A stretch of 38,261 bases of DNA from Chloroflexota bacterium (GTDB taxonomy: Bacteria; Chloroflexota; Dehalococcoidia; SHYD01; JACQUQ01): the NCBI GenBank assembly GCA_016210175.1, contig JACQUQ010000142.1:1-38261 (forward strand). The letters run 5' to 3'. The translations under genes and the position numbers were made by a program. The notes below the pieces were generated by a model. It ran no database searches. It was not told the DNA's origin and saw only the letters and a program-made list of their open reading frames with translations. The first letter of the stretch is position 1, and every line of letters starts with the position of its first letter. Below are positions 4,654 to 22,571 of the stretch, in pieces.

Positions 4654-4708
4654 TTTCAGCCAATACTCAGCATCATCTCAGCACGTCTTCAGGACGATCG
4701 CCTACCCT
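4654..4708 (+). promoter_or_regulatory. TCAG 11-bp repeat operator with -10 box, upstream of the lipoprotein gene
   Basis: Four TCAG cores start at 4656, 4667, 4678 and 4689, each preceded by a pyrimidine and most followed by C, at exact 11-bp pitch. The hexamer TACCCT (4703-4708) begins 14 nt after the start of the last core. The ATG it would serve is at 4767. It belongs to a set of six identical arrangements in the window. Direct 11-bp repeats overlapping the -35 region are the known layout for OmpR/PhoB-family activators. Confidence 0.8.
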
Positions 4709-4766
4709 GGCGGTAGCAGTGGCGGTACCGCAGCTCCATGGGGCGCAGGACGAGGAGGACGAGGGT

Positions 4767-5339
4767 ATGGTCAGGCAGGTCCAGGGTGGTACGTCGCTTT
4801 GGTCCGCAGGTGTGGTCGTTGCGCTCGGACTCCTGCTCGGAGGCGTGCTGCTCTCGGGGTGCAGCATCCCAGGGGACGGCGCAGATCTCGCGAGCGGTCC
4901 CACGACGTCCGCTGCCACCGGCGCCGCAGCGCCGGACGGCGATACGTCTGGCCCGGCGTCCGGCTCCCAGCCGAGCGCCGCCACGCAGACCAGCGAAGGC
5001 GGCCAGGTGACCGTAGAGGTAACCTGGAAAGGACCGAACGCCGGGCCGGCTTTCACGGTGGTGATGGACACCCACGCCGTGGACCTGGACGGCTACGACC
5101 TCCGGCAGCTCGCGGTGCTGCGCACCGACCAGGGAGCGCAAGCGCAGCCCACGGACTGGGATGCGCCCAAGGGCGGCCACCACCGCAGCGGCACCCTCAC
5201 TTTCCCAGCGACGGCTCCCGATGGCAGCGCCCTGCTCGGGCCGAACACCCGCAGCATCGAGCTTATCATCCGTAATGTGGCCGGGGTAGCGGAAAGGACC
5301 TTCCGATGGACGCTCTCGCCCTTGGTACCGGGCAGGTGA
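4767..5339 (+). CDS. Conserved-looking lipoprotein with an extracytoplasmic beta-rich domain
   Basis: The 190-residue product starts at an ATG preceded by AGGAGG (4753-4758) at good spacing. A lipoprotein signal ends at LLSGC (Cys32); a low-complexity Ala/Ser/Gly/Pro linker runs to about residue 78, and a folded domain fills the rest (TVEVTWKGPNAGPAFTVVMD, then LDGYDLRQLAVLRT). The folded part looks like a small beta sandwich; I do not recognise a named family. Its last 34 bases overlap the HMA membrane gene at 5306, so the two are probably translated together. The 11-bp TCAG array directly upstream places it in the putative metal/envelope-stress regulon. A periplasmic ligand- or metal-binding partner of the membrane protein is a reasonable guess only. 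Confidence 0.75.
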   Translation: MVRQVQGGTSLWSAGVVVALGLLLGGVLLSGCSIPGDGADLASGPTTSAATGAAAPDGDTSGPASGSQPSAATQTSEGGQVTVEVTWKGPNAGPAFTVVMDTHAVDLDGYDLRQLAVLRTDQGAQAQPTDWDAPKGGHHRSGTLTFPATAPDGSALLGPNTRSIELIIRNVAGVAERTFRWTLSPLVPGR

Positions 5340-6037
5340 CGGAGCGCTTCGCCGTGCGCGGCATGACCTGCGGCTCCTGCGTGCAGCACGTGGAGGCCGC
5401 CATCGCCGGGGTGCCCGGCGTGCGCTCGGTCCGGGTGGACCTGGCAAGCGCCACGGCCACCGTCGGGCGGGACCCTACCGCTAGTATCGCCGCGGCGCTC
5501 CACCAGGCCGTGGCCGAAGCAGGGTACGCCCTGGACACCCCAGCAGCGCCGGAACGGGCGGCCCCGCCCCGCCTGGCCCTGCGTCCCCTGGCCTTGGGAC
5601 TGCTGGGCGTCCTGGGGCTGCTGGCCTTCTACCTGGGCGCCATCACCCTGGCCCAGGGCTGGGCCCACGCGCTCCAGCAGCTCGCCGAGGACCGCTGGTT
5701 CGTAGGCGCCATCGTCGCCGGCTTCGGCACCCAGGTGGGGCTGTTCAGCTATCTGCGGGGGCTGCACGCCCAGACAACGGCCGGAGGCGTGGCGGCCAGC
5801 ACCGGCACCAGCACCGCGGCCATGCTCGCGTGCTGCGCCCACCACCTCACCGAAGTGTTCGCCGTCATCGGGCTGTCGGGAGCCGCCGTCTTCCTGAACG
5901 TGTACAAGACGCCGCTGTTGTGGCTCGGCATCCTCATGAACCTCGTCGGGGTGCTCTACCTGCTGTGGCAGATCCGCCAGCAGCGCACCATGGCCTGCGA
6001 GGTCCATCACCATAGTACGGCGTCACAGCTCAGCTGA
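5306..6037 (+). CDS. HMA domain fused to a four-helix membrane protein
   Basis: The 243-residue protein has an N-terminal heavy-metal-associated domain (about 12-78) with the intact metal motif GMTCGSC (Cys22, Cys25). About four transmembrane helices follow (roughly 92-118, 130-152, 168-195, 203-223). The third helix region carries LACCAHHLTEV (Cys176, Cys177, His179, His180), a second potential metal site inside or at the edge of the membrane, and the C-terminus ends in a CEVHHH motif. The layout suggests uptake or hand-over of a soft metal such as copper across the membrane, reminiscent of small mercury/copper transporters, but I cannot name the family. It overlaps the preceding lipoprotein gene by 34 bases and has GGAAAGGA before its ATG. 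Confidence 0.8.
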   Translation: MDALALGTGQVTERFAVRGMTCGSCVQHVEAAIAGVPGVRSVRVDLASATATVGRDPTASIAAALHQAVAEAGYALDTPAAPERAAPPRLALRPLALGLLGVLGLLAFYLGAITLAQGWAHALQQLAEDRWFVGAIVAGFGTQVGLFSYLRGLHAQTTAGGVAASTGTSTAAMLACCAHHLTEVFAVIGLSGAAVFLNVYKTPLLWLGILMNLVGVLYLLWQIRQQRTMACEVHHHSTASQLS

Positions 6038-6068
6038 GGGAGACGGATGTTTCCATCGTCCGGTTGAG

Positions 6069-6113
6069 CGAAGTGAAGCATCCGTACCCTGGAGCTACGG
6101 ATGCTTCACTTCG
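6069..6113 (+). terminator. Perfect 18-bp inverted repeat, probable terminator
   Basis: The arms at 6069-6086 and 6096-6113 (CGAAGTGAAGCATCCGTA and its complement) pair perfectly around a 9-nt loop. No clear T-tract follows. It lies 31 bases after the HMA membrane gene and 68 before the multicopper oxidase, so it probably ends the first operon or shields the oxidase from read-through. Confidence 0.55.
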
Positions 6114-6180
6114 TTGAAGATGAAAGAGGCAGCCCGTTCGCCTGTGATAGAACGCTAAGGAAAAGGAGTCGCCCTCAGCT

Positions 6181-7308
6181 ATGGGTATCCCCCTCTCGTT
6201 GCGGACGATCTGGTTAGGAATGCTCTTCGGCCTCGCCCTGGCCTTCGTCGCGGCCGTGGCCTGGGGCGCGGGCCGCGCGTCGGCGCCAGTGGCCGGCACC
6301 CGGGCCGCGCTCACCACCGGGTTCGATCTCGGCGTCGCCAGGGCGAAGCCAGCGCCGACAGGCACGGTGCAGGAGTTCCAGCTCACGGCGCAGGAGGCCC
6401 CATGGGAGATCGCGCCGGGAGTCCGGGTCCCTGCCATCACCTACAACGGGCAGGTGCCGGGACCGCTGATCCGGGTGACCGAAGGGGACACCCTGCGGGT
6501 GACCCTGAAAAACGAGCTCCCCCAGGCCACCAGCATCCACTGGCACGGCCTGCACGTCCCCAATGCCATGGACGGCGTGCCGCCTTTCACCCAGGCGCCT
6601 ATCGAGCCGGGACAGAGCTTTACCTACGAGTTCCCGGCCAGCCACGCCGGCACCTTCATGTATCACTCGCACTTCAACTCGGTCGAGCAGATCGATCGCG
6701 GGCTGTACGGGCCGCTCATCATCGACCCGGCCACGCCGCCCCCGGCCCGCTTCGATAAAGAGTTTACCATGGTGCTCTCGGCCTGGAACACCAGCGCCAT
6801 GCCGGGCGACCAGCACGGCATGGCTGATGGCAGCTCCATGCCGGGGCCGGCCGCGAGCATGGGCGGCATGAACATGGATTACAACTACTTCACCATCAAC
6901 GGGAAAGCCTTCCCGTCCGCCGCGCCGTGGACGGTCCGGGAAGGGGACCTGGTGCGGGTGCGGCTGATCAACATCTCCAACCTGGCCCACCCCATGCACC
7001 TCCACGGCCACGACTTCACCGTGGTCGCCAAGGACGGCGAGCCGATCCGCCCCGACCTCCAGCAGACGGTGAACACGCTGTCCATAGACGCGGGGGAGAC
7101 CTACGATATCGTGTTCCGGGCAGACAACCCCGGCAGTTGGGTGTTCCACTGCCACGAGCTGCACCACACGGAGAACGACGGGGTGGAGCCCGGCGGGCTG
7201 ATCCAGGTGATCCAGTACGAGGGCGTTCCCCCCCGGACCACCGGCGAGAGCGCGCCCCCGGCCACACCGACCCCTATGCCGGCCACCATGCCGGGCATGG
7301 GACACTAA
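6181..7308 (+). CDS. Two-domain multicopper oxidase
   Basis: The 375-residue secreted enzyme starts with a signal sequence (hydrophobic 10-33). All copper motifs are present: HWHG (120-123), YHSH (161-164), HPMHLHGH (270-277) and HCHELHH (323-329), which supply the trinuclear cluster and the type 1 site. The length and two cupredoxin domains match small (two-domain) laccases and related copper-resistance oxidases, which usually act as trimers. A Met/His-rich stretch at about 207-232 (MPGDQHGMADG and MGGMNMD) resembles the methionine-rich inserts of cuprous oxidases. The likely role is periplasmic oxidation of Cu(I) or phenolic electron donors. The C-terminal 25 residues are Pro/Thr-rich and end in MPGMGH. 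AAGGAG lies 12 bases before the ATG; a hairpin separates it from the upstream genes. Confidence 0.92.
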   Translation: MGIPLSLRTIWLGMLFGLALAFVAAVAWGAGRASAPVAGTRAALTTGFDLGVARAKPAPTGTVQEFQLTAQEAPWEIAPGVRVPAITYNGQVPGPLIRVTEGDTLRVTLKNELPQATSIHWHGLHVPNAMDGVPPFTQAPIEPGQSFTYEFPASHAGTFMYHSHFNSVEQIDRGLYGPLIIDPATPPPARFDKEFTMVLSAWNTSAMPGDQHGMADGSSMPGPAASMGGMNMDYNYFTINGKAFPSAAPWTVREGDLVRVRLINISNLAHPMHLHGHDFTVVAKDGEPIRPDLQQTVNTLSIDAGETYDIVFRADNPGSWVFHCHELHHTENDGVEPGGLIQVIQYEGVPPRTTGESAPPATPTPMPATMPGMGH

Positions 7309-7581
7309 CGAACAGGAGGGAAGGCAACCACACGCGGAGGCGGGGCCTCGGTTCCCGTATCAGGCCTGGTGCGCCAGACGGAGGAGGTGGTCGTGCGGAG
7401 GCGATTCAGGAACAGGCTGGCCACCTAGGGACAGAACTTGGCCGAGTTCGGGCGGAGATCGGAGCAGTCAAGCGGCACACATCGCAGTGGCGCTGAGCAA
7501 CGGGCCGCCCCGCGACGACCACCCGGCATGGTCTCAGGGAAAGCTCAGCGGCGTACACTCGGGGGAACGAGGAGGTGGACG

Positions 7582-8724
7582 ATGGCAGTGTCGGTCCCAT
7601 CCCCCAAAGTGGGACGCCATCCCGTTCAGACCCCACCACCGGTAGCAGCGGACCAGGCCCCAACAGCCCCAGCCAGCCTGTGGGGCTGGCTGGACGACCG
7701 TTTGGGTCTCTCCGCGCTGCGCTATCACATCCCGGCCCACGCCAACACCATCTGGTACACCCTGGGCGGGATCACGTTCATGGGGATCGTGGTCCTGGTC
7801 GTGACCGGCGCGTGGCTCTCCCAGTACTACAACCCCGACCCCATCGCGGCGCGCGAAAGCGTCCTCTACATCCAGAACGTTGCGCCCCTGGGGGACATCC
7901 TGCGGGGGATCCACGTCTGGACGGCCTATCTGGTCGTCATCACGGCCGCACTCCACCTGATCCGGGTGTTCGTGACCGCCTCCTACAAGGTCCCCCGGGA
8001 GGTCAACTGGCTGGTGGGGGCGGCGCTGCTGGGGATGCTGTACTTCGGCGCCGTGTTCAGCGGCACCATGCTGCGCTGGGACCAGGAAGCCTACGAGGCC
8101 ATGGCCCATAACATGGAGCTGGCCTCCTTCCTGGGCGCCGTCGGCGGCTTTTTCTCCCACACCTTCACCACCAGCGTCTCCATGCTGCCCCGCCTGTATG
8201 GCCTGCACGTGAGCATCGTGCCCCTGCTGCTGGTGCTGCTGCTCATCGCGCACTTCTTCCTCATCAAGCACCACGGCATCTCCCCGACCCCGGCCCAAGC
8301 GGAGCGCGGCGAGGCCCCCGGCGGACGGCTGCCGCGAGCCAAGGAGACGGGGCACTACCCGACCCACCTGCGGATGATGGTCGGCTATGGGCTGGCTCTG
8401 CTGGGGCTGGCCGGGATGCTGAGCGTGGTGTTCCCCCAGGAGATTGGGCCGGCGGCGGACCCGACGATGGAAGTGACCAAGCCGCCCTTCGTCTTCTACT
8501 GGGTCTACCCCTTCGAGGACTGGTTCGGGGTGCGCGGGATGCTCTACGCCATCCTTGGGCTGTGGGCGTTCCTGGCGGCCCTGCCCTTCGTGGACCGCAC
8601 GCCGTACCGCGGCCTCCGGCAGCGGCCCGTGGTGGTGGCAGTGGGGCTGGCGCTGCTGGTCGCGGTGCTGGCGCTCTCCGTCATGACTGCCGTGAAGCCA
8701 CCGGTCGCGCACATCGGGGGCTAG
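7582..8724 (+). CDS. Cytochrome b of a bc-type complex (b6/subunit IV fused)
   Basis: The 380-residue membrane protein contains both heme pairs of cytochrome b. His111 and His125 are separated by 13 residues, and His209 and His224 by 14, which is the spacing of the b6 type. The N-terminal part is WLDDRLGLSALRYHIPAHAN and the C-terminal half continues into the subunit IV region, where the usual PEWY quinol-site motif is replaced by a PPFVFYWVYPFEDWF segment. It should carry electrons from quinol across the membrane. No Rieske protein or cytochrome c gene lies next to it; instead a membrane-anchored periplasmic protein and a helical-repeat lipoprotein follow. The start is the ATG at 7582, with GGAGG 6 bases upstream; upstream in-frame sequence back to 7438 is low in coding character. 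Confidence 0.92.
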   Translation: MAVSVPSPKVGRHPVQTPPPVAADQAPTAPASLWGWLDDRLGLSALRYHIPAHANTIWYTLGGITFMGIVVLVVTGAWLSQYYNPDPIAARESVLYIQNVAPLGDILRGIHVWTAYLVVITAALHLIRVFVTASYKVPREVNWLVGAALLGMLYFGAVFSGTMLRWDQEAYEAMAHNMELASFLGAVGGFFSHTFTTSVSMLPRLYGLHVSIVPLLLVLLLIAHFFLIKHHGISPTPAQAERGEAPGGRLPRAKETGHYPTHLRMMVGYGLALLGLAGMLSVVFPQEIGPAADPTMEVTKPPFVFYWVYPFEDWFGVRGMLYAILGLWAFLAALPFVDRTPYRGLRQRPVVVAVGLALLVAVLALSVMTAVKPPVAHIGG

Positions 8725-8743
8725 CGCAGAAAGGTAGATGACT

Positions 8744-9295
8744 ATGAACCGCAGAACCTTGCTCGCGATGGTGCTGGTCCTGGGCGCGCTCGCCGTGAGC
8801 GCCCGCCTATCGCTGGCCCACGGTGAAAGCGTGGTTGTCCAACCAGAGACGCCCCTACCCGGCGACGTGATCACGGTGAAGGGCGCGGGGCTGGGCGCCA
8901 ACCGGACCGTGGAGCTTCACCTTATCGGTCCCGGTGGTGTGGATATCGATTTCAACCCGGCCAAAACGGACGCTGAGGGTGGCTTCACCGTGGAGCTTCG
9001 TCTGCCCACCAACCTCGCGCCCGGCGCCTACCAACTCCGGGCCGTCGGGGAGGAGATAGCGACGGCAGACCTCCGGGTGCTCGCCCCTGGCGGCACGGGC
9101 AGCCCCGCCCCGGCCGCCGTGGTGATGCCGGTACGGGAGCGCTCCCTGGGCGAGACCATTGGCCTGGTCGCGCTGTTTGGCGTGCTGGCCGGGCTGGGAC
9201 TGTTCCTGGCGCGCACCGTCCGGGGGCCTGCGGTTTCCCACGAAGCCGAGGCCGACGCGGTCCGCCCGGTGGCGCAGACGCAGTCCGCCGGCTAA
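8744..9295 (+). CDS. Exported membrane-anchored protein with Ig-like domain
   Basis: The 183-residue product has an N-terminal signal peptide (MNRRTLLAMVLVLGALAV) cut near SLAHG, and an extracytoplasmic beta-sandwich of about 100 residues (VVVQPETPLPGDVITVKGAG, GGFTVELRLPTNLAPGAYQL), similar in style to Ig-like or copper-resistance CopC-like folds. One C-terminal transmembrane helix (about 135-155) precedes a short cytoplasmic tail. The ATG at 8744 was preferred to the one at 8738 because AAGG (8731-8734) is 9 bases before it. It starts 19 bases after the cytochrome b stop and is almost certainly in its operon. A processed N-terminus beginning with His could ligate copper, as in CopC-type proteins, but this is inference. 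Confidence 0.75.
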   Translation: MNRRTLLAMVLVLGALAVSARLSLAHGESVVVQPETPLPGDVITVKGAGLGANRTVELHLIGPGGVDIDFNPAKTDAEGGFTVELRLPTNLAPGAYQLRAVGEEIATADLRVLAPGGTGSPAPAAVVMPVRERSLGETIGLVALFGVLAGLGLFLARTVRGPAVSHEAEADAVRPVAQTQSAG

Positions 9296-9392
9296 TGTAA
9301 CGGCAACTGGTGGACCCGGTTTGCCGGGTGGTCTTGTCGAGCAGCGAGGCCACCTCTTCCCGGCGACGTGCTCCTGACAAAGGGGATATGCC

Positions 9393-10643
9393 ATGCAACC
9401 CGCAGTGACACCGCGCACCATGCAGCGGGCCGGGATAGCGAGCGTCACGCTCACGGTGCTGTTCCTGGCGGCCGCCTGTAGCCAACCGGCGCAGACCAGT
9501 CAGCCCGCTCGGACGGGCCAACCTGTCCAGACGGACCAGACACAGGCGGGAGGGGCTGCTGCCCAGGCCCCACAAACAGCAGCCCCTCCACGCACCATGA
9601 TGTCTCCTATGGCCTCCCTGGAGGTCGTCCACGCTACCTACGTTGACGTGGCGGGAAACCTGGCCGACCTGCGCTCCCGGGTCGCCCGGTGGGAACAGGG
9701 CGATGCAGGGAGTCTCAACATCGCCAAGGAAAAGGCGGAGCGGCTCAGGGCGCTGCTGCGCCATGCGACGTGGCCGCCGGCCATGACCGGCCCGGTCACC
9801 AAGATCGCCACCGCGTTGGAGCCGGTCGAGCAAGCCCTGAAGGCCCAGGACCTGGCGGCCGCGCAGCAGCAGCTTGACGCTATCCAGGAGTACACCGAAG
9901 ACCTGGAGCACGATTTTTATGACACGTGGGTGCCTGCGCACAAAGGCGCGCCGTTGAGTCCGATGACGGTACACGCCGGCTACCTTGACCTCTCAGCCAA
10001 CCTCAGCGGTCTGCGCTCCCACATCGCCGCCTGGGAGCAGGGCGACCAGGAAAGCCTGGGCATTGCCAGCGAGAAGGCCGAGCGCATCGAGGCGCTGCTG
10101 CACAACATGCCCTGGCCGGGGCCCCTGGCGGAGCCCATCGAGCAGATCGAGACAGGGCTTCCCGCAGTCGTGAAGGGGCTCAAGGCCAAGGACATGGCGG
10201 CGACGAAGCAGGCCCTGGCCCCCGTCAGTGAGGCCGCCCACGACCTCACCCATGACTTCTATGGGAAGTGGATGGCCCAGGCCAAGGGCATGACCAGCGA
10301 TGCCGCCTGCGTCCAGATGGCCTACCTGGACCTCTCGGCCAATGTGAGTGACCTCCGTGCGCGTATCGGCCAGTGGGAGCAAGGGGATGAGGCGAGCCTC
10401 AATACGGCCAAAGAGAAGATCGAGCGGGTCAATGCCGTGCTCACCCACACCGACTGGCCGGAAGGGATGACCGCTGCGACGACCACGATCGCAGCAGTAG
10501 TGCAGCCGGTCGAGCAAGCCCTCAAGGCTAAAGACGTGGCCGCGGCCAAGCAGGCGCTCACGACCATGGGAGAGGCCCCCCACGACCTCACCCATGTCTT
10601 CTACGACAAGTGGCTCATGGGCCCGATGATGCAGACCCCGTGA
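9393..10643 (+). CDS. Lipoprotein with three tandem 114-residue helical repeats
   Basis: The 416-residue lipoprotein (lipobox AAAC, Cys29; Gln/Thr/Ala-rich linker to about residue 70) consists of three copies of one domain. Equivalent residues recur exactly every 114 positions: WEQGD at 100, 214 and 328, and the first helix at 80, 194 and 308. Each copy has four predicted helices: YxDxxxNxxxLRxxxxxWEQGD; SLxxAxEKxERxxALLxxxxWP; a third with VEQALKAKDxAAAKQAL; and a fourth ending L(T/E)HxFYxxW. This suggests an up-and-down four-helix bundle. A His opens copies 1 and 2 and another is conserved in the final LxHxFY motif of all three, so a metal or heme site is possible. I know no named family. 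It follows the cytochrome b genes and may serve that complex or store metal. ATG at 9393 has AAAGGGGA upstream. Confidence 0.8.
   Translation: MQPAVTPRTMQRAGIASVTLTVLFLAAACSQPAQTSQPARTGQPVQTDQTQAGGAAAQAPQTAAPPRTMMSPMASLEVVHATYVDVAGNLADLRSRVARWEQGDAGSLNIAKEKAERLRALLRHATWPPAMTGPVTKIATALEPVEQALKAQDLAAAQQQLDAIQEYTEDLEHDFYDTWVPAHKGAPLSPMTVHAGYLDLSANLSGLRSHIAAWEQGDQESLGIASEKAERIEALLHNMPWPGPLAEPIEQIETGLPAVVKGLKAKDMAATKQALAPVSEAAHDLTHDFYGKWMAQAKGMTSDAACVQMAYLDLSANVSDLRARIGQWEQGDEASLNTAKEKIERVNAVLTHTDWPEGMTAATTTIAAVVQPVEQALKAKDVAAAKQALTTMGEAPHDLTHVFYDKWLMGPMMQTP
9630..10625 (+). repeat. Three tandem 342-bp coding repeats
   Basis: Copies begin at about 9630, 9972 and 10314 (codons for residues 80, 194 and 308). 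The pitch is 342 bp without any length change, although the nucleotide sequences have diverged. This indicates old intragenic triplication with selection against indels. Confidence 0.75.
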
Positions 10644-10706
10644 CGGTCACCGCGGCACGAAAGGAGGTGGGCCGCCCGCCGCGCGCTGCGGAGCCAGAGC
10701 GCTTTC

Positions 10707-10765
10707 CCACCGGGACACCCAGGGCCACGTACCCGCGCGGCAGGTGGCCCTGGGTGTCCCGGTGG
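10707..10765 (+). terminator. Perfect 22-bp inverted repeat, probable terminator
   Basis: Arms at 10707-10728 and 10744-10765 pair perfectly around a 15-nt loop. It stands 64 bases after the helical-repeat lipoprotein. There is no T-run, so it may be a Rho-type stop, an RNA-stabilising 3' end or, less likely, a protein-binding palindrome. Confidence 0.5.
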
Positions 10766-10802
10766 CAACCTGCTCCGGAATGACGCTCGGAGGGTCACGA
10801 CT

Positions 10803-10925
10803 ATGAAGAGGAGAACCCATCGGAACAGGACCGCTCGGGGCACTGGGAGGGATGCGCGCCCCCTTACCATCTCCGGTACCCGGTCGTTCTACCTCGATCG
10901 CCGGTCCTCGCCGGCTCATGCTTGA
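10803..10925 (+). CDS. Possible 40-residue leader ORF
   Basis: An ATG at 10803 is preceded by GGAGGG (10789-10794) with an ideal 8-nt spacer. The 40-residue frame ends at a TGA at 10923-10925, right beside the AGGAGG of the next gene. The peptide is very basic (MKRRTHRNRT start) and resembles no family I know. The ribosome site is the only evidence; it may be a small protein, a leader peptide coupled to the next gene, or chance. Confidence 0.3.
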   Translation: MKRRTHRNRTARGTGRDARPLTISGTRSFYLDRRSSPAHA

Positions 10926-10937
10926 GGAGGTGACTTC

Positions 10938-11372
10938 GTGGCTGACGCTAACGAGACTATCGTCCGCCGTGCCGTGGAGGAGATCCTGGGCAAGGGGAAC
11001 CTGGCCCTGGTGGATGAACTCATCGCCCCGAACTACGTGGGCCATGTTACCTTCATCCCGGAGACCATGCGCGGCCCGGAGGCGGCCCGCAAGGTGGTGC
11101 AAACCTTCCGTACCGCCTTCCCGGACTTGACCTTCACCATCGAGGACTTGTTCACCGCCGGTGACAAGGTCGCCTGCCGCTTTACTGCCCAGGGCACGCA
11201 CCAGGGGGAACTCATGGGCATCCGCCCGACCGGGAGACGGGGCGCCGTGTCGGGGATCGCGCTCTTCCGCGTCGTGAATGGGAAGATTGTGGAAGAGTGG
11301 GCCAACTGGGACGCGCTGAGCATGTTGCAGCAACTCGGCGTGCGCTCGATTGAGGAGCTACGGGCCGCGTAA
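10938..11372 (+). CDS. SnoaL-like / ester cyclase-family protein
   Basis: The 144-residue protein has the cone-shaped NTF2-like fold signature of the SnoaL-like polyketide cyclase family. Visible pieces are IVRRAVEEILGKGNLALVDE, MRGPEAARKVVQTFRTAFPD and a C-terminal FRVVNGKIVEEWANWD. Such proteins are common in bacteria and mostly of unknown substrate; a cyclase, isomerase or hydrolase role is possible. It begins with GTG at 10938 after AGGAGGTGA and ends before a good terminator (11404-11437). Its link to the metal genes on either side is unclear. Confidence 0.88.
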   Translation: MADANETIVRRAVEEILGKGNLALVDELIAPNYVGHVTFIPETMRGPEAARKVVQTFRTAFPDLTFTIEDLFTAGDKVACRFTAQGTHQGELMGIRPTGRRGAVSGIALFRVVNGKIVEEWANWDALSMLQQLGVRSIEELRAA

Positions 11373-11403
11373 CCACAGACGCAGGAGCGCCGCGGCCAGA
11401 GGC

Positions 11404-11437
11404 GGGGGCATACTAGTGTATGCCCCCGTGCTATTTT
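11404..11437 (+). terminator. Intrinsic terminator
   Basis: A 10-bp GC-rich stem GGGGGCATAC/GTATGCCCCC closes the 4-nt loop TAGT (11404-11427), with CTATTTT just after. It ends the SnoaL-like gene and insulates the TCAG array that starts at 11507. Confidence 0.8.
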
Positions 11438-11506
11438 CCGGGCGGCCCCGCAGGGTGGCGCCCGTCGGCACGGGTCGGGGAGGCGCACGGCGCCTGCGGC
11501 CGCGAT

Positions 11507-11561
11507 CCTCAGCCTGCCCTCAGCTACTCCTCAGCTTGAGTTCAGGCGCGACGCCTACGCT
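11507..11561 (+). promoter_or_regulatory. TCAG 11-bp repeat operator with -10 box, upstream of the DUF5676 operon
   Basis: TCAG cores start at 11509, 11520, 11531 and 11542 at exact 11-bp pitch; three of the four are CTCAGC. TACGCT (11556-11561) starts 14 nt after the last core, as in the other arrays. The stretch TTCAGG-N7-CCTAC is shared with the array at 4654. It would drive the four-gene operon from 11613. Confidence 0.82.
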
Positions 11562-11612
11562 AGAGAGAGAGGTCATGGGGAAGGGAAGTAGGTGGGGAGG
11601 AGGCAAGACATC

Positions 11613-12164
11613 ATGAGCGCGCAACCCCAGCCGCGCCAGTTTCCCAGCGGCCAGGTCCAGGCGATGCCGGCCGCGGGACTCCAGGTCGTGCCGCTCGCCA
11701 ACGCGGTGACGGCGGTGGCCCTGGTCTTCTATGTCGCCTGCGCTGCGCTCGCGATCGTGGCGCCGGAGGCCTTGATCGGGTTGTTCCAACCCTGGCTCCA
11801 CGGCTTGACCCTGGAGCCCCTGCGTCCGACGGGACCGTGGTTCCGTCCCGGTGAGTTCGCCATCGGGCTGCTCACCTTCAGCGCCACGTTCTGGCTGGGG
11901 ACCGCTGCCGTCGCCTGGCTGTACAACGCCTGGTCCCGGCGGCAGCCTCGCTACCGGAGCGCGTGGGGAGCGGCGGCATCTCGCGGGGATGCCGCCGCCC
12001 TGAGTTATGAAGGCGACCAGCACGACGCCTGCGCCCGCCGCTCCATGCACTTTTCCGGCGGTGTTCAGGGTGTCCTCGCCGCATCGCCCCGTACCATGGG
12101 GAGGAGACGCGGCACGCCGGGGCACCGCCCTGACCGTTCACACCATGGGCAGAGGAGGGCGTGA
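11613..12164 (+). CDS. DUF5676-like membrane protein with an abnormal C-terminal tail
   Basis: The 183-residue reading frame contains a short two-helix membrane core at about residues 28-107 (LANAVTAVALVFYVACAALA and the closing AWLYNAW). It resembles the small DUF5676 proteins, which normally end just after the WLYN motif. Here about 75 further residues follow, rich in Arg, His, Ala and Gly and unlike a folded domain, and the DNA for that tail holds an 11-bp hairpin (11970-11998). A lost stop codon or a frameshift near 11934 is likely. ATG at 11613 follows GGGGAGGAGG. The frame ends at a TGA that overlaps the next gene's ATG. The role of DUF5676 is unknown; it recurs near metal-resistance genes. 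Confidence 0.6.
   Translation: MSAQPQPRQFPSGQVQAMPAAGLQVVPLANAVTAVALVFYVACAALAIVAPEALIGLFQPWLHGLTLEPLRPTGPWFRPGEFAIGLLTFSATFWLGTAAVAWLYNAWSRRQPRYRSAWGAAASRGDAAALSYEGDQHDACARRSMHFSGGVQGVLAASPRTMGRRRGTPGHRPDRSHHGQRRA
11970..11998 (+). terminator. Hairpin inside the DUF5676 tail, terminator-like
   Basis: Eleven-base arms GCGGCGGCATC and its complement enclose the 7-nt loop TCGCGGG. No T-run follows. It lies about 35 bases after the expected end of the DUF5676 core, where an attenuating hairpin would be normal if the gene once ended there. Confidence 0.35.
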
Positions 12165-12853
12165 TGGCCAAGCGATGGTGGGTGCTTCCCCTGGTGGCCC
12201 TGGGCGGGGTGCTCCTCTCCCAGAAGCTGCGGCCCGGCGTCCTTGAGCGCCTCACCGCCAACGTGCGCGCCTTCGACCTGCCCAGCGCAGGGCTGTACGA
12301 TGCCGTCGTCACGCCGGTGATGGACGGGCTGTACCGGCGGGCCGCCAGGGAAGTCGCCGTGGCCTTCCCCGCGGGGGCGGTGCTGGAGGTCGGGAGCGGG
12401 CCGGGCCAGCTCGCGGTCTACCTGGCGCGGCAGGCGCCCCGGACCAGGGTGGTGGGTCTCGACCTCTCGCCGGACATGGTGGAGCGGGCGCGGCGCAAAG
12501 CGGCGGATGCAGGGCTCGCCGCGCGGGTGCAGTTCGAGGTGGGCGACGTGGCCGCGCTGCCCTTCCTGGACGGCACCTACGATGGAGTGGTGAGTACCTT
12601 CTCGCTCCACCACTGGCAGGACGCCGCTCGCGGGCTGGCCGAGATCCACCGCGTGCTCAAGCCCGGAGGGGAAGCCTGGATCTACGACTTCTCCGACTGG
12701 CTGCGGCAGTGGGCGCACGAAGGCACCGAGTTGGCCCGACTGGCCGCGGCCAGCCCCTTCCGAGGCGGGTCGGTGGAGGTGGTCCGCTGGCCGGGGCCGG
12801 TCCCCCTGGTCCGCCGCCTGCGCCTGCGGCGCAGCGAGCAGGGTGGGCCATAA
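12164..12853 (+). CDS. Membrane-anchored SAM-dependent methyltransferase
   Basis: The 229-residue enzyme has one N-terminal hydrophobic helix (WWVLPLVALGGVLLS, about 5-20) and a class I methyltransferase domain with motif I VLEVGSGPGQLA, the acidic-loop VVGLDLSPDMVERAR and post-I motifs DVAALPFLDGTYDGV and RVLKPGGEAWIYDF. This is the UbiE/Methyltransf_11 pattern; the substrate is unknown and could be a membrane lipid or quinone. The ATG shares one base with the TGA of the preceding gene; an in-frame GTG one codon earlier is also possible. It belongs to the operon behind the 11507 array, with cupredoxin and CcdA-like genes following. Confidence 0.85.
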   Translation: MAKRWWVLPLVALGGVLLSQKLRPGVLERLTANVRAFDLPSAGLYDAVVTPVMDGLYRRAAREVAVAFPAGAVLEVGSGPGQLAVYLARQAPRTRVVGLDLSPDMVERARRKAADAGLAARVQFEVGDVAALPFLDGTYDGVVSTFSLHHWQDAARGLAEIHRVLKPGGEAWIYDFSDWLRQWAHEGTELARLAAASPFRGGSVEVVRWPGPVPLVRRLRLRRSEQGGP

Positions 12854-12901
12854 GGCTGGCAGCCGTGGTCCGGCGTATGCGCCCCGAAAGGAGGAAGCGC
12901 C

Positions 12902-13339
12902 ATGCCTGCCAAGCGTCCCCACCACCGCGCCCGGAGCAGAGAACCGCACTTCGGGTTGCGCCTCGGGGTCTTCCTTGCGGTCGTTGTCCTGGTCGTCGGG
13001 GTCGCGTTCTGGCTGCTCCGCCCTCCCCCATCGTCGCAAAGCGCCGATCTCACGGTCACGATGACGATGGCCGGCTTTCAGCCGGGGAGGCTGACCATCC
13101 CGGCGGGCCAGCCTATTGCCGTGCGGCTGGTCAACCCGGATAGCCGGTTCCACACCGACGGCGGGGGCGTCCACCAGTTCGCGATCCCGGACCTGGGCAT
13201 TGATGTGCGGGTCCAGCCCGAGAGTGCGATGGTGGTGCAGCTGCCCGCGGCCCAGCCGGGGACGTATGCCTTCTACTGCGACGTCTGCTGCGGCGGCAAG
13301 GAGAGCCCGACCATGCAGGGCGCCATCGTGGTTGGCTAG
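12902..13339 (+). CDS. Membrane-anchored cupredoxin with a Cys-rich metal loop
   Basis: The 145-residue protein has one N-terminal transmembrane helix (about 18-39) and an extracytoplasmic cupredoxin domain. Candidate ligands are His84 and His91 (GGGVHQFAI) and the loop YCDVCCGGKESPTMQG with Cys126, Cys129, Cys130 and Met138. Two or more Cys in the ligand loop are more like the binuclear CuA sites of cytochrome oxidase subunit II and N2O reductase than a mononuclear blue-copper site, but the usual C-x3-C-x3-H spacing is not reproduced. It may be a copper carrier or an electron-transfer protein. AAAGGAGG precedes the ATG. The CcdA-like gene follows 18 bases later, which would suit a protein whose cysteines must be kept reduced for metal loading. 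Confidence 0.85.
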   Translation: MPAKRPHHRARSREPHFGLRLGVFLAVVVLVVGVAFWLLRPPPSSQSADLTVTMTMAGFQPGRLTIPAGQPIAVRLVNPDSRFHTDGGGVHQFAIPDLGIDVRVQPESAMVVQLPAAQPGTYAFYCDVCCGGKESPTMQGAIVVG

Positions 13340-13357
13340 CCAGTCTGGAGGGCTACT

Positions 13358-14080
13358 ATGGGAGAACCGGCGCTCCAGCTCACGCTCCCGGCGGTCCTGG
13401 GCGCGGCCCTCATTGACAGTCTGAACCCCTGCGCCTTCGCCCTGCTGCTGGTCTTCGTCGCCACCACCCTCGCCCTGGTACAGCAGCGGGTCGGGAGCGC
13501 GGGCGCCGCGCACGCCCAGTACTGGCTGCTCTCCCGGGGCGGCGTGTACATCCTGGGCATCTTCCTGACCTATCTCGCGCTGGGGTTCGGACTCCTGGGC
13601 ACCCTTGAGCTTGCGCAATCCCTCAGCAGCACGCACCTGGCGAGCCGGGCGGCCGCGCTGTTCGCCCTCGGTCTCGGCCTGCTGACACTCCAGGAGGTGC
13701 TGCTCCCGGAGCTCGGCACCCGGCTCAGCGCCCAGGTGGACATGGCACGCTTGCGCGAGCTGGTGGGGCGGCTGAACGTGCCGGGGCTATTTGGCGCCGG
13801 CGTCCTGGTGGGGCTCTGCACCGTCCCATGCGCAGGCGCGGTCTACCTGGCGGTGCTGGCCTTGCTCTCGGCCCAGACCACGGCCCTGGCGGGCGCGGGC
13901 TACCTGGTGCTCTACAACCTGGTGTTCGTGTCCCCGCTGGTCGTGCTCCTGGCCCTGTCCAGCAGTCCGCCGGTCTACCGGCAACTGGCGCGCTGGCAGG
14001 TACACCACCGGGTGTTCCTCAAGCTGGGGACCAGCGTGGCGGCCATCGCCGTCGGCCTGCTGACGCTGCTGGTGGTCTGA
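13358..14080 (+). CDS. CcdA/DsbD-type thiol-redox transmembrane protein
   Basis: The 240-residue membrane protein has six predicted helices and the two conserved cysteine sites of the CcdA/DsbD-beta family: NPCAFALLL in the first helix and CTVPCAGAVYLAV in the fourth. Such proteins carry reducing equivalents from cytoplasmic thioredoxin to periplasmic thiols, often for cytochrome c maturation or for reducing copper-binding cysteines. Here the immediate upstream partner is the Cys-rich cupredoxin at 12902, a natural client. The ATG at 13358 has TGGAGGG upstream. It is the last gene of the operon; the UbiB gene is convergent 51 bases on. Confidence 0.88.
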   Translation: MGEPALQLTLPAVLGAALIDSLNPCAFALLLVFVATTLALVQQRVGSAGAAHAQYWLLSRGGVYILGIFLTYLALGFGLLGTLELAQSLSSTHLASRAAALFALGLGLLTLQEVLLPELGTRLSAQVDMARLRELVGRLNVPGLFGAGVLVGLCTVPCAGAVYLAVLALLSAQTTALAGAGYLVLYNLVFVSPLVVLLALSSSPPVYRQLARWQVHHRVFLKLGTSVAAIAVGLLTLLVV

Positions 14081-14131
14081 GCCTGCTGGTCGGCCGCGCG
14101 GGGAGCGCCGGGCGCGAGCCGGCCGGCGCGC

Positions 14132-15808
<1,677 letters not shown>

Positions 15809-15835
15809 GTGATCTCCCTGGCGACCGGTGTTGCC

Positions 15836-15890
15836 AGGCTACCACGGCTGGCTGAGCCATGCCTGAGGCGGCCCTGAAGGATGGCTGAAA
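15836..15890 (-). promoter_or_regulatory. TCAG 11-bp repeat operator with -10 box, upstream of the UbiB gene
   Basis: On the minus strand four TCAG cores (plus-strand CTGA at 15852, 15863, 15874 and 15885) have exact 11-bp pitch. The minus-strand hexamer TAGCCT (15841 down to 15836) begins 14 nt after the last core. Predicted transcription would start close to the ATG at 15808. The array lies in the divergent region shared with the regulator gene at 16021, so it could also affect that gene. Confidence 0.82.
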
Positions 15891-15933
15891 GCTGCCGGGG
15901 CAGCGGCATGGATGGAGCGCCCACTTGATACAA

Positions 15934-15939
15934 TATACT
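15934..15939 (+). promoter_or_regulatory. Possible -10 box for the OmpR-type regulator gene
   Basis: TATACT stands in a short AT-rich patch (TTGATACAATATACTATAGG, 15925-15944) within GC-rich DNA, about 80 bases before the regulator ATG. No good -35 element lies 17 bases upstream, so an activator may be needed, or another element of the patch is used. Confidence 0.35.
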
Positions 15940-16020
15940 ATAGGATGGCGATCTCGCCCTCCTGGTGGGAACCTCACACGTCGCCGCCTGAAGCAGGCGG
16001 GCGAGAGGAGCAGCGCGACC

Positions 16021-16695
16021 ATGCAGCGTATCCTGGTGATCGACGACGATCCCGCAGTGACCAGCGTCCTCAAGCGCGGTCTCTCGTATGAGGGGTTTGC
16101 GGTCAGCACGGCCAACTCCGGCACGGAAGGGCTGACCCTGGCACGCGACCAGTCGCCGGACCTGGTGATCCTCGACATCATGATGCCCGGCATCGATGGC
16201 CTGGAAGTGCTCCAGCGCTTGCGCGCCGCGGACCCGCAGCTTCCCGTCATGATGCTCACCGCGAAGGACGCCACGGCCGACCAGGTCCAGGGGCTGGAGC
16301 GCGGGGCCGACGACTACGTGACCAAGCCCTTCACCTTCGAGGTCTTGCTGGCGCGGCTGCGGGCGCTCCTGCGCCGGCGCGATGTGGAACGGCCGGAGGT
16401 GCTGCGCTTCGCCGACCTCAGCCTGAATACCGGGACCCGGCGCGCCCAGCGAGGACCGCGGGAGATCGACCTGACCACTACCGAGTATGACGTGCTCCGG
16501 CAGTTCCTGGAGCACCCGCGCCGGGTCCTGCCCAAGGACTTCCTGATGGACCGGGTGTGGGGCTACGACTTCGGGGGTAATTCCAACGTCCTGGAGGTGT
16601 ATGTGAAGCAGCTCCGCCAGAAGCTCGAAGCGGCGGGCGAGCCGCGGCTGATCCACACCGTGCGCGGCGCCGGCTACCTCCTGCGGGAGGACTAA
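16021..16695 (+). CDS. OmpR/PhoB-family response regulator
   Basis: The 224-residue regulator has a receiver domain (about 2-115) with acidic residues in VIDDD, phospho-acceptor Asp52 (LVILDIMMPG), Thr80 and Lys102 (TKPF). A winged-helix DNA-binding domain follows (about 130-222) with TTTEYDVLRQFLEHPRRVL, a recognition-helix region NVLEVYVKQLRQKL and the wing HTVRGAGYLL. It is followed two bases later by its histidine kinase. OmpR-family proteins bind direct repeats of about 11 bp as head-to-tail dimers. The six four-unit TCAG arrays around it are therefore the likely targets. The ATG at 16021 has GAGAGGAG about 11 bases upstream; upstream in-frame residues are not receiver-like. Confidence 0.93.
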   Translation: MQRILVIDDDPAVTSVLKRGLSYEGFAVSTANSGTEGLTLARDQSPDLVILDIMMPGIDGLEVLQRLRAADPQLPVMMLTAKDATADQVQGLERGADDYVTKPFTFEVLLARLRALLRRRDVERPEVLRFADLSLNTGTRRAQRGPREIDLTTTEYDVLRQFLEHPRRVLPKDFLMDRVWGYDFGGNSNVLEVYVKQLRQKLEAAGEPRLIHTVRGAGYLLRED

Positions 16696-16697
16696 GG

Positions 16698-18131
16698 ATG
16701 TCCCTGCGCCTGCGCCTGGCCCTCTGGTATGGCGGGCTGACCGGCCTGGTGGTCTTCCTGGTCAGCATGCTGTCTTACGCCGCCCATAGCCGCGCCCAGT
16801 ACGATGACCTGGACCGGCAGCTAGAGAGTGCGGCGCACCACGTCGCCGGGGTCCACGCGACCGCCGGGACCTCCGATGAGCTGGCCGCCATGCTGGCGGT
16901 GCCCCTGGCGCCCAACCTGGCGGTACGGGTGTATGGGCCGGCCGGGGCGGTGCTGGTGGCCTCGCCCAACGCCGCCGCAGTCCCGGAGGCGGACCCCGCG
17001 GCCGTGCTGGCCCGTCCGTCGCAGCCGGCCTTTGACGCGCTGGCCGGACTCGCACCGCCGTTCGCGGCGGTCGATGCGGGTCGCGGCGCGTTTGGCCTGG
17101 CGGCCGGCCCCGACGGCAGCCGCTGGCGCCTCTACGTGCTTCCCGGGAACGGCGCGGTGCAGCACCTCCTCGCGGCCGCGCCCCTCGGCAGTATCGATGC
17201 ATCCGTGCTGGCGTTCCGCCGGCTCATCCCGCTGCTGACCCTGGTGGGCATCGTGGTCAGCTTCGTGGGCGGCGGGCTGGTGGCCGGTCGGGCGCTGCGG
17301 CCCGTGGCGTTGCTGACCGCAACCGCGCGGGCCATTGCGCGCTCGCGCAGCTTCCGCCAGCGGGTCCCGGTTGAAGGCGGCCGCGATGAGCTGAGCCAGC
17401 TCGCCGCCACCTTCAACGAGATGCTGGCCAGCCTGGAGCAGGCCTATCAGTCCCAGCAGCGCTTCGTGGCCGATGCCAGCCACGAGCTGCGGGCGCCGCT
17501 CACGGCCATCCAGGGCAACCTGGAGCTCCTGGAGCGCCAGCCCACGATGCCGACCGAGGAGCAACGGGAGGCGATCAGCGAAGCTATCCGGGAAGCGCGC
17601 CGGCTGGCGCGGCTGGTGGCCGACTTGCTGGCGCTGGCCCGCGCCGATGCGGGCGTGGCGCTCCGCCGCGAGCGGGTGGAGTTGGACCGGGTGCTGATGG
17701 ACGCGCTGAGCGAGGCCCGCCACCTGGCGCGCGGCCACCGGCTTGAGGTCACGACGATCGAGCCGGTCGTGATCGCAGGCGACCAGGACTACCTGAAGCA
17801 GCTCCTCCTCATCCTGCTGGACAACGCCCTCAGGTACACGCCCCCTCCAGGCACGGTTGCGCTGAGCCTGCGGCGCAACGGAACCCAGGCCGAGCTTGCG
17901 GTGCGCGATACCGGGGTGGGCATTGCCGCCGCCGATCTCGCCCTGGTGTTCGAGCGCTTCTACCGCGCTGACCCGGCGCATACCCGCAACCCCGGCGGCA
18001 CCGGCCTGGGCCTCCCCATCGCCCGCTGGATCGTCCAGCAGCATGGCGGCGACCTCGTGCTCACCAGCGCGCCCCAGCAGGGCACCACCGCGACCGTCCG
18101 TCTGCCGCTCCGCACCCAGCCAGACCGGTAG
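16698..18131 (+). CDS. Sensor histidine kinase, partner of the OmpR-type regulator
   Basis: The 477-residue kinase has a first transmembrane helix (about 8-28), an extracytoplasmic domain of about 140 residues, a second helix (about 177-197, LLTLVGIVVSFVGGGLVAGRAL) and a HAMP linker. HisKA follows with the phospho-acceptor His in DASHELRAPLTAIQGNLELL, then HATPase with LLDNALRYTPP (N box), VRDTGVGIAAADL (G1) and GGTGLGLPIARWIV (G2). It senses something outside the membrane; the extracytoplasmic part is Ala/Pro-rich with no obvious His/Met metal site, so the signal may be envelope stress rather than free copper. It starts 2 bases after the regulator stop. A TCAG array begins 6 bases after its own stop, serving the next gene. 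Confidence 0.92.
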   Translation: MSLRLRLALWYGGLTGLVVFLVSMLSYAAHSRAQYDDLDRQLESAAHHVAGVHATAGTSDELAAMLAVPLAPNLAVRVYGPAGAVLVASPNAAAVPEADPAAVLARPSQPAFDALAGLAPPFAAVDAGRGAFGLAAGPDGSRWRLYVLPGNGAVQHLLAAAPLGSIDASVLAFRRLIPLLTLVGIVVSFVGGGLVAGRALRPVALLTATARAIARSRSFRQRVPVEGGRDELSQLAATFNEMLASLEQAYQSQQRFVADASHELRAPLTAIQGNLELLERQPTMPTEEQREAISEAIREARRLARLVADLLALARADAGVALRRERVELDRVLMDALSEARHLARGHRLEVTTIEPVVIAGDQDYLKQLLLILLDNALRYTPPPGTVALSLRRNGTQAELAVRDTGVGIAAADLALVFERFYRADPAHTRNPGGTGLGLPIARWIVQQHGGDLVLTSAPQQGTTATVRLPLRTQPDR

Positions 18132-18136
18132 CCGGC

Positions 18137-18191
18137 ATTCAGAGAACCATAAGCTGCGCTTCAGCCTGGCCTCAGGAACCGGCGCGATGGT
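18137..18191 (+). promoter_or_regulatory. TCAG 11-bp repeat operator with -10-like hexamer, upstream of the SPW gene
   Basis: Cores start at 18139, 18150 (imperfect: TAAG), 18161 and 18172, at exact 11-bp pitch. GATGGT (18186-18191) begins 14 nt after the last core. The second unit is the only imperfect core among the 24 in the window. The segment CTCAGGAACC is nearly identical to the end of the array at 19206. Confidence 0.72.
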
Positions 18192-18316
18192 GGCGTTGTG
18201 AGGTTGTGCGTTGCCTGGCCGCGTGGATTGCGCGGAAAACCGTGGGCAACCAGGCAGGCATCTCCTCCCTTCAGCATGGCTGCCCGCAAGCTCACCGAGG
18301 AGGGGAGGTGAGGTGG

Positions 18317-18658
18317 ATGTATTGGGTGACGGGGATTCTCGGCCTGGCGCTGCTGGTGGCGCCGTTTGTGCTGGGCTTCAGCGACCATACCGCGGCGCTG
18401 TGGGCCAGCCTTCTCCTGGGCGGAGCGATCACCCTGGTGTCCGTCGTCAAAGCCCTCGCCCAGGATGCAATGGCGACCTGGGAGTACTGGATAGCGGCGA
18501 TCGCGGGCGTGGTCGCCGTGGTGGCGCCCTTCCTCCTGGGCTTCAGTGACCACGCCGCAGCGCTGTGGACCAGCCTTCTCCTGGGCACGGCAGTGGCGGC
18601 GCTGGCTGGCTATCAGGTGTTCTTTGCCGAGGCAGAGACGCATCCGACGCATGCCTAG
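18317..18658 (+). CDS. SPW-repeat membrane protein
   Basis: The 113-residue protein has four hydrophobic helices arranged as two copies of an SPW-like repeat. The segment PFVLGFSDHTAALWASLLLG (16-35) recurs as PFLLGFSDHAAALWTSLLLG (71-90), a 55-residue (165-bp) pitch, and the DNA of the two copies is still very similar, so the duplication is fairly recent or kept alike. The function of SPW proteins is unknown; they are small integral membrane proteins often induced in stress. ATG at 18317 is preceded by GGGGAGGTGAGG; a GTG three codons earlier is an alternative. The TCAG array at 18137 puts it under the putative regulator. Confidence 0.8.
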   Translation: MYWVTGILGLALLVAPFVLGFSDHTAALWASLLLGGAITLVSVVKALAQDAMATWEYWIAAIAGVVAVVAPFLLGFSDHAAALWTSLLLGTAVAALAGYQVFFAEAETHPTHA

Positions 18659-18696
18659 CGTTAGGCACCGGCACGGCGCGGGGTACGGTCAGATCA

Positions 18697-18730
18697 GGCG
18701 GGCTGCGCAGCAGGGCAGCCTCAGCCCGCC
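18697..18730 (+). terminator. Possible terminator hairpin after the SPW gene
   Basis: Nine-base arms GGCGGGCTG and CAGCCCGCC enclose a 16-nt loop, 39 bases after the SPW stop. There is no T-tract, so confidence is low. Confidence 0.35.
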
Positions 18731-18838
18731 ACGGTCCACCGGCCCCGCGCCACAGTTTTCCACCCGTTTCCTGCGCAGCCACCCACCGCGATCCCACCCG
18801 CGTGCGTCCCTGGGGACGTCTCCTCTGTCCTGGTGAAA

Positions 18839-18893
18839 AGTCAGCGTCTCCTCAGCCCGCCTTCAGCTAGCGCTCAGCAAGCCATGTGATGCT
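18839..18893 (+). promoter_or_regulatory. TCAG 11-bp repeat operator with -10-like hexamer, upstream of the His-rich peptide gene
   Basis: Cores start at 18841, 18852, 18863 and 18874 with exact 11-bp pitch, all followed by C. GATGCT (18888-18893) begins 14 nt after the last core. The GTG start it would serve is at 18925. Confidence 0.8.
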
Positions 18894-18924
18894 CATGAAG
18901 GAAAGCAGGGGAAGGAGGTCAACT

Positions 18925-19128
18925 GTGGAGGAGTTCCTGCAAACCTACGGCACCTGGATCGTTGCCGGTCTTTTCTTCCTGTTCATGCTGTTCATGCACG
19001 GCGGTCACGGGATGGACCACGGGCAGCACGGCGGGCAGCGGCCGCCGCGGTCGGCAGGAACAGATGACGAGACCGACGAGAGGACCGCAGGCGGGTCGCG
19101 GTCACGCGGCTCTGGCGGCTGCCACTGA
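18925..19128 (+). CDS. Small membrane protein with His/Gly/Met-rich tail
   Basis: The 67-residue product has one transmembrane helix (about 10-29, TWIVAGLFFLFMLFM) directly followed by HGGHGMDHGQHGGQ, a strong candidate metal-binding stretch, then a polar Arg/Gly/Ser tail. The GTG at 18925 was chosen because AAGGAGGTC (18912-18920) is ideally placed; an ATG 13 codons earlier is in frame but has no ribosome site. It resembles the small His-tailed membrane proteins found in copper clusters, including the DUF2933-like one at 24707, and is likely a membrane-tethered copper binder. It has its own TCAG operator. Confidence 0.65.
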   Translation: MEEFLQTYGTWIVAGLFFLFMLFMHGGHGMDHGQHGGQRPPRSAGTDDETDERTAGGSRSRGSGGCH

Positions 19129-19205
19129 CCGCCGACAGGTCGTCTGCGGTGCCCTCGACGGTGCGATGAGGAGGGCCGCACCGGCGCTCACGCGGCGGAC
19201 GCACT

Positions 19206-19260
19206 CATCAGCACGCACTCAGTCGTGCTTCAGCTTATCTTCAGGAACCAGTGGCACGAT
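19206..19260 (+). promoter_or_regulatory. TCAG 11-bp repeat operator with -10-like hexamer, upstream of the copper ATPase operon
   Basis: Cores start at 19208, 19219, 19230 and 19241 at exact 11-bp pitch. CACGAT (19255-19260) begins 14 nt after the last core and fits NANNNT. A further AT-containing element, TACAGT at about 19271, is an alternative -10. The operon begins at the ATG at 19322. Confidence 0.78.
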
Positions 19261-19749: not shown

Positions 19750-19776
19750 GCAGTGACAGGGGGAGGAGTCTGGAGC

Positions 19777-22509: not shown

Positions 22510-22571
22510 TGAGTGCTGAGTGCTGAGTGGGGTGGCGGGGACTGATTCCTCATTGCTCAGCACTCAACACT
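22510..22571. repeat. REP-like inverted repeat
   Basis: TGAGTGCTGAG at 22510-22520 (and a further TGCTGAG copy just after) pairs with CTCAGCACTCA at 22556-22566. It fills the gap between the ATPase and cupredoxin genes. Similar 'GAGTGCTGAG' intergenic repeats are, from memory, scattered in some Thermomicrobia genomes; only one instance is seen here. It could attenuate or stabilise the operon mRNA. Confidence 0.5.

What the first reader, a model, noticed from the sequence alone, without database searches (positions are those of the whole stretch)
4654..19260. Six TCAG-repeat operator arrays define a regulon around an OmpR-type regulator
Seen: four direct repeats of a TCAG core at exactly 11-bp pitch occur at 4654, 11507, 15847 (minus strand), 18137, 18839 and 19206, each oriented toward the following gene. 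In total 23 of 24 cores are perfect TCAG. Known: OmpR/PhoB-family regulators bind tandem 11-bp direct repeats. Inferred: the regulator at 16021 with its kinase at 16698 controls the lipoprotein/HMA-membrane pair, the DUF5676-cupredoxin-CcdA operon, UbiB, the SPW protein, the His-rich peptide and the copper ATPase operon. Four consecutive units suggest two dimers per promoter.
Basis: partly seen in the sequence, partly recalled or inferred. Interest (0 to 1): 0.9.

Follow-up and report, generated by a model that had tools for sequence, protein, structure and literature searches.

The report
TCAG-array promoters of a copper regulon
Nine promoters in this Chloroflexota genome share four TCAG repeats exactly 11 bases apart at a fixed distance from the start signal, and comparison across hundreds of genomes ties them to one two-component regulator that probably switches on copper-handling genes.

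Summary
All six arrays exist (23 of 24 cores perfect; true starts 2 bases right of those given). A seventh lies at 1399-1363 (minus), and two more lie on other contigs. The 3.47-Mb genome holds exactly nine sites, all intergenic and each facing a gene. Across 40 arrays chosen on TCAG alone, the second -10 base is A in 40/40 and the sixth T in 38/40. No -35 box is left. The four 11-bp units and 14-nt spacing match E. coli pstS (PhoB).

Comparative tests link the arrays to the 16021 regulator. In 400 Chloroflexota genomes all 13 with an ortholog of at least ~70% identity have phased arrays (p=2e-10). Array clusters found blind to the regulator contain it plus CopA, UbiB, DUF5676, cupredoxin, CcdA and multicopper oxidase genes. 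Genomes without it have few, mostly unphased arrays. The same array and phase occur in Bacillota before distant regulators and YkcB-type transferases.

Most likely a class II activator of a copper regulon. Binding, the direction of regulation and the copper signal are inferred. New variant of a known kind, unlike the CopR-type inverted-repeat box.

The parts
1347..1399 (-).
290..1222 (-). Methyltransferase-domain protein (310 aa), target of array 7
   Evidence: Pfam Methyltransf_12/23/25
4656..4708 (+). Array 1 (4 perfect cores) + N10 + -10 TACCCT
4719..5339 (+). Lipoprotein-like gene, first gene after array 1; homologs follow arrays in G026, G058, G404, G451, G570
   Evidence: no Pfam hit
5306..6037 (+). 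HMA-domain membrane protein
   Evidence: Pfam HMA 1e-15
6181..7308 (+). Two-domain multicopper oxidase, probably same operon
   Evidence: homologs follow arrays in G047, G008 and others
11509..11561 (+). Array 2 + N10 + -10 TACGCT
11592..14080 (+). DUF5676 - methyltransferase - cupredoxin - CcdA/DsbD-like operon
   Evidence: Pfam
15836..15888 (-). Array 3 + N10 + -10 TAGCCT, directed at UbiB
14132..15808 (-). UbiB/ABC1 atypical kinase; preceded by an array also in G047 and G008
   Evidence: Pfam ABC1 2e-81
16021..16695 (+). OmpR/PhoB-type response regulator, proposed array-binding protein
   Evidence: Response_reg + Trans_reg_C; co-occurrence
16698..18131 (+). Cognate sensor histidine kinase (HAMP, HisKA, HATPase_c)
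   Evidence: adjacent to the regulator in relatives
18139..18191 (+). Array 4 (second core TAAG) + N10 + -10 GATGGT
18206..18658 (+). SPW-repeat membrane protein
   Evidence: Pfam SPW 1e-17
18841..18893 (+). Array 5 + N10 + -10 GATGCT
18925..19128 (+). His-rich small membrane peptide; start corrected from 18886 (upstream of the predicted transcript) to GTG 18925 behind AAGGAGG
   Evidence: similar small His-rich membrane peptides near arrays in G058, G047, G248
19208..19260 (+). Array 6 + N10 + -10 CACGAT
19322..22966 (+). Small ORF - HMA peptide - CopA (YHS, HMA, CPC, YN, MxxSS) - cupredoxin operon

Best explanation
Each array is the operator of an activator-dependent promoter for the OmpR/PhoB-type regulator at 16021. 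Four TCAG units at 11-bp pitch (TCAG at about -59, -48, -37 and -26 if the invariant A is -11) take two head-to-tail dimers on one DNA face. The downstream dimer covers the -35 region and the spacer and stands in for the missing -35 box by contacting sigma-70 region 4, as PhoB does at pstS. The kinase at 16698 phosphorylates the regulator on an envelope signal, most likely copper, and nine promoters turn on: CopA export with cupredoxin and HMA chaperones, the lipoprotein/HMA/multicopper-oxidase operon, the DUF5676-cupredoxin-CcdA operon, UbiB, SPW, a His-rich peptide, a methyltransferase, a cupredoxin on C232 and a PEP-synthase-like gene on C164. Shown: arrays, phase, rarity, co-occurrence with the regulator, conserved targets. 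Inferred: binding, dimer count, activation, copper as signal.
For: Nine sites genome-wide, all intergenic and directed. Invariant phase to TANNNT: 40/40 A and 38/40 T in arrays selected on TCAG only. Control: of 15-16 arrays in class genomes without the ortholog about one is phased, whereas four of four off-contig arrays in ortholog genomes are. Class: perfect arrays in 8/12 ortholog genomes against 5/381 others, p=5e-11. Phylum: 13/13 genomes with an ortholog of about 70% or more have phased arrays against 63/387 others, p=2e-10. Blind converse: array clusters found by pattern in G504, G404, G451, G570, G673 contain the regulator at 69-81% identity, its kinase and copper genes. Array-bearing regulators cluster on the tree, 99/94 support, 12 of 13 rows. 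pstS has four 11-bp units and the same 14-nt spacing. CopA carries Cu(I)-ATPase signatures.
Against: No binding or expression data. Orthologs at 62-68% identity often lack arrays (G035, G212, G381, G612, G543, G642, G714, G478). The recognition helix does not cleanly separate array-bearing from array-less relatives. The own regulator gene has no array of its own. The sensor domain has one invariant His and one mostly conserved His but no conserved Cys or Met, so copper sensing is not supported by ligands. PEP synthase is an odd copper target. The genome is a fragmented assembly with 6.6% contamination.
Confidence: 0.8

Rival explanations
1. The regulator binds the arrays and activates, but the signal is not copper itself: the kinase senses redox, quinone or envelope stress and copper proteins are part of that output.
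For: Sensor lacks conserved Cys/Met. Targets include UbiB, methyltransferases, PEP synthase and CcdA. A PpiC-type foldase gene lies near an array in G011. Bacillota use the same array with a cell-envelope glycosyltransferase.
Against: CopA, HMA chaperones, cupredoxins and multicopper oxidase recur as targets in many genera.
Confidence: 0.25
2. A different response regulator of the cell binds these arrays, for instance the 62% paralog on C254.
For: Own genome has 45 regulator matches; related regulators at 57-58% also sit beside arrays in G558, G467, G667.
Against: The C254-type paralogs have no arrays within the 5-6 kb examined. Arrays track the 16021 orthologs on the same contig in 9/12 class genomes and in clusters found blind.
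Confidence: 0.08
3. The arrays are repressor operators: unphosphorylated regulator blocks RNA polymerase and signal releases it.
For: The array overlaps the -35 region and spacer.
Against: No -35 hexamer remains in any array promoter, and the -10 varies outside TANNNT, as in activator-dependent promoters; the geometry equals pstS.
Confidence: 0.08
4. The repeats are sequence noise or simple tandem repeats without regulatory role.
For: A few genomes without the regulator have TCAG arrays inside unit repeats (G057, G116, G131, G377).
Against: Spacers differ between units, phase to -10 is invariant, sites are rare and directed, and orthologous genes carry them across families.
Confidence: 0.01

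Closest known systems
PhoB pho-box promoter of E. coli pstS
   Same: Four direct repeats at 11-bp pitch; TCA of the last unit 14 nt before the -10 hexamer; no -35 box.
   Different: Core TCAG instead of (C)TGTCA; the regulator is not PhoB by the NCBIfam cut-off; targets are copper genes.
CzcR/SilR/CopR/CusR heavy-metal regulators (TIGR01387) with cop box; AgrR
   Same: Same task, OmpR-type regulator with heavy-metal-type kinase as best family match; class II position is reported for AgrR (PMC7380067).
   Different: Below the family cut-off (221.5 vs 279.2; kinase 215.9 vs 292.6). AgrR box is an inverted repeat ATTACA-N4 (PMC7380067), here direct repeats.
Mycobacterium tuberculosis PhoP
   Same: Best solved-structure sequence match; tandem dimer on direct repeats, 7-bp motif + 4-bp spacer = 11 bp (PMC4832192); recognition-helix N, V, E, Y shared.
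   Different: Core TCACAGC; helix positions S216 and Y220 are V193 and Q197 here; different regulon.
Bacillus YrkP/YclJ-type regulators (ykcBC regulon)
   Same: Bacillota relatives (43-45%) have the same TCAG array and -10 phase before their own gene and before YkcB-like genes; B. subtilis ykcBC is in the YclJ and YrkP regulon (PMC5836110).
   Different: Target physiology is glycosyltransfer, not copper; the published YrkP consensus could not be read here.

Membership tests
OmpR/PhoB response regulators | Response_reg receiver plus Trans_reg_C winged helix | tested here: met
   8e-34 and 1e-26
OmpR/PhoB response regulators | Regular direct-repeat operator at 10-11 bp | tested here: met
   11-bp pitch in all arrays; that this protein binds it is inferred
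Heavy-metal regulators TIGR01387 (CzcR/SilR/CopR) | Score above the curated cut-off | tested here: not met
   221.5 bits vs 279.2
Heavy-metal regulators TIGR01387 (CzcR/SilR/CopR) | Inverted-repeat cop/AgrR box | tested here: not met
   Operators are direct repeats; box definition from PMC7380067
PhoB (TIGR02154) | Score above the curated cut-off | tested here: not met
   213.2 bits vs 296.2
pho-box-type class II promoter (architecture) | 11-bp direct repeats ending 14 nt before -10, no -35 hexamer | tested here: met
pho-box-type class II promoter (architecture) | Activation through sigma-70 region 4 | not testable with these tools
   Needs in vitro transcription or structure
YrkP/YclJ-type regulators | Published binding consensus | not testable with these tools
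   Ogura 2008/2010 not in the library; only the regulon membership of ykcBC was read (PMC5836110)

The most novel reading that the evidence does not exclude
The phased TCAG array is one promoter grammar kept, or reinvented, across at least two phyla by a set of OmpR-type regulators that drive different outputs. In Chloroflexota it defines a copper regulon that places uncharacterised proteins (DUF5676, a UbiB-type kinase, the lipoprotein/HMA pair, His-rich membrane peptides, SPW, ICMT-like methyltransferases) in copper handling under a regulator lineage outside CopR/CusR/CueR/CsoR.
Probability: 0.5. Interest if true: 0.65.

Novelty: new variant of a known kind. Interest (0 to 1): 0.52.

Why it matters
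The array plus phased -10 is specific enough to read a regulon directly from sequence in a phylum with almost no genetics. It assigns a probable copper role to several uncharacterised families and gives a cheap search pattern that works across phyla. It also shows copper control built on a pho-box-type promoter instead of the inverted-repeat cop box, and a case for studying how regulator relatives keep an operator while changing what they control.

Tried and rejected
MprA (CTCAG box recalled from memory): the C. glutamicum MprA consensus is TKTTAAGAAM, and the M. tuberculosis box could not be read; dropped. CutR: motif TAWATAAA; dropped. Chance repeats: rejected by shuffles, reversed-pattern controls and phase. 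Recognition helix as discriminator: does not separate the groups. Metal ligands in the sensor: only His47 (12/12) and His29 (9/12) conserved (alignment columns). Literature on Chloroflexota copper two-component systems: nothing relevant among six papers found. Degenerate arrays before the cytochrome b or ICMT-like gene in the window: none found.

Full report
Observation. The six arrays are present. Each is TCAG repeated four times at exactly 11 bp; 23 of 24 cores are perfect, and only 18150 reads TAAG. Chance expectation for a looser three-unit pattern is 0.18 in the window; 14 were found. Positions are two bases to the right of those given on the + strand. A seventh array lies at 1399-1363 on the minus strand, before a methyltransferase gene (290-1222). 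Across the 3.47-Mb genome there are nine arrays at <=1 mismatch; the two outside the window are before a PEP-synthase-like gene on C164, next to the 3' end of another copper ATPase gene, and before a cupredoxin lipoprotein on C232. The window is a whole contig.

I lined up 40 arrays chosen only for TCAG: nine from this genome and 31 from relatives. The bases 15 and 19 nt after the start of the last TCAG are A in 40/40 and T in 38/40. They are the second and sixth bases of a -10 hexamer TANNNT that begins exactly 10 nt after the last TCAG. The -35 position is occupied by the third unit and carries no TTGACA. Requiring three units plus the phased A and T gives exactly nine hits at <=1 mismatch in the genome; the reversed control gives one at <=2. 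Control arrays from class genomes without the regulator are almost never phased, while four of four further arrays on other contigs of regulator-bearing genomes are.

Which protein. The gene at 16021 encodes an OmpR/PhoB-type regulator with its kinase at 16698. In 393 genomes of the same class, 12 have an ortholog above 300 bits. Arrays occur in nine of the 12, on the regulator's own contig; perfect arrays are in 8/12 against 5/381 other genomes, p=5e-11. In a 400-genome sample of the phylum all 13 genomes with an ortholog of about 70% identity or more have phased arrays, against 63 of 387 others, p=2e-10. The converse also holds: array clusters found by pattern alone in G504, G404, G451, G570 and G673 contain the regulator at 69-81% identity, its kinase and the copper genes. 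On a tree of 53 regulators, 12 of the 13 members of one well-supported clade (99/94) have arrays; the 60-62% paralogs, the own C254 copy included, have none in the stretches examined. In several samples arrays also lie beside regulators of 57-58% identity, so the operator is not exclusive to this ortholog group.

Targets. Array-directed genes recur between genera: CopA with cupredoxin, HMA peptides, the lipoprotein/HMA-membrane pair with multicopper oxidase, DUF5676, cupredoxin with CcdA, UbiB, methyltransferases, small His-rich membrane peptides, and an ICMT-like gene. The window's CopA has CPC, YN and MxxSS signatures, and the oxidase is nearest to two-domain laccases. The His-rich peptide should start at GTG 18925, not 18886, which would lie upstream of the transcript. 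The regulator gene has no array in this genome; in L107 and in Bacillota an array does precede it.

Mechanism. The E. coli pstS promoter, checked in a public genome, has four units at the same pitch and its last TCA is 14 nt from the -10, exactly as here. By analogy two tandem dimers bind, and the downstream one replaces the -35 box. M. tuberculosis PhoP, the best structural match by sequence, binds 11-bp direct repeats as a tandem dimer (PMC4832192). Activation is therefore the best reading. The signal is less certain: the sensor domain has no conserved Cys or Met.

Relation to known systems. The pair scores best against the CzcR/SilR/CopR and matching kinase families but falls below both cut-offs. 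AgrR of that group binds an inverted repeat (PMC7380067), so filing this as CopR would be wrong, though it probably does a similar job. In Bacillota, relatives at 43-45% identity have the same array and the same -10 phase before their own genes and before YkcB-like transferase genes. B. subtilis ykcBC belongs to the YclJ and YrkP regulon (PMC5836110). Whether this reflects shared descent or convergence is open, because the tree is weak there.

Limits. Genomes in the search set are unnamed and many are draft assemblies; closely related genomes are not independent, so p-values are indicative. Several orthologs at 62-68% identity lack arrays, so the linkage is tight only in the close clade. The library searched holds open-access papers only, so a description of this operator elsewhere cannot be excluded.

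Noticed in passing
G000:C164 near 18914, minus strand (L044 about 10760-10915): The 3' end of a second copper ATPase gene reads GYNVIAFPIA*GVFYPVFG, with an in-frame TGA: a broken copy or an assembly error at the contig end.
   Followed up: no
G261, G324, G339, G349, G359, G391 and others of family f15 (L234-L237): A different 11-bp array, TCAG-N4-CTGTCAG-N4-CTGTCAG ending in GTCAA, recurs in one family and is mostly not phased to the -10 position used here; probably another regulator's operator.
   Followed up: partly
L203, L205, L206, L207, L208, L214, L219 upstream of the regulator gene: Array-less 60-62% paralogs share a conserved upstream element TTTGACCTGGATA...TTATCATT, apparently an ordinary -35/-10 promoter.
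   Followed up: no
L107 (Gemmatimonadota MAG REEB316): Its regulator sits inside the Chloroflexota array clade and is preceded by an array: horizontal transfer or a misbinned contig.
   Followed up: no
window 2540-4568 (-): A LuxR-type response regulator and a GAF-domain kinase are encoded divergently from the lipoprotein operon, sharing the intergenic region that holds array 1.
   Followed up: no
L320 (Desulfosporosinus G741:C792) 7143-7165: The array runs on to six TCAG units at 11 bp, more than the usual four.
   Followed up: no
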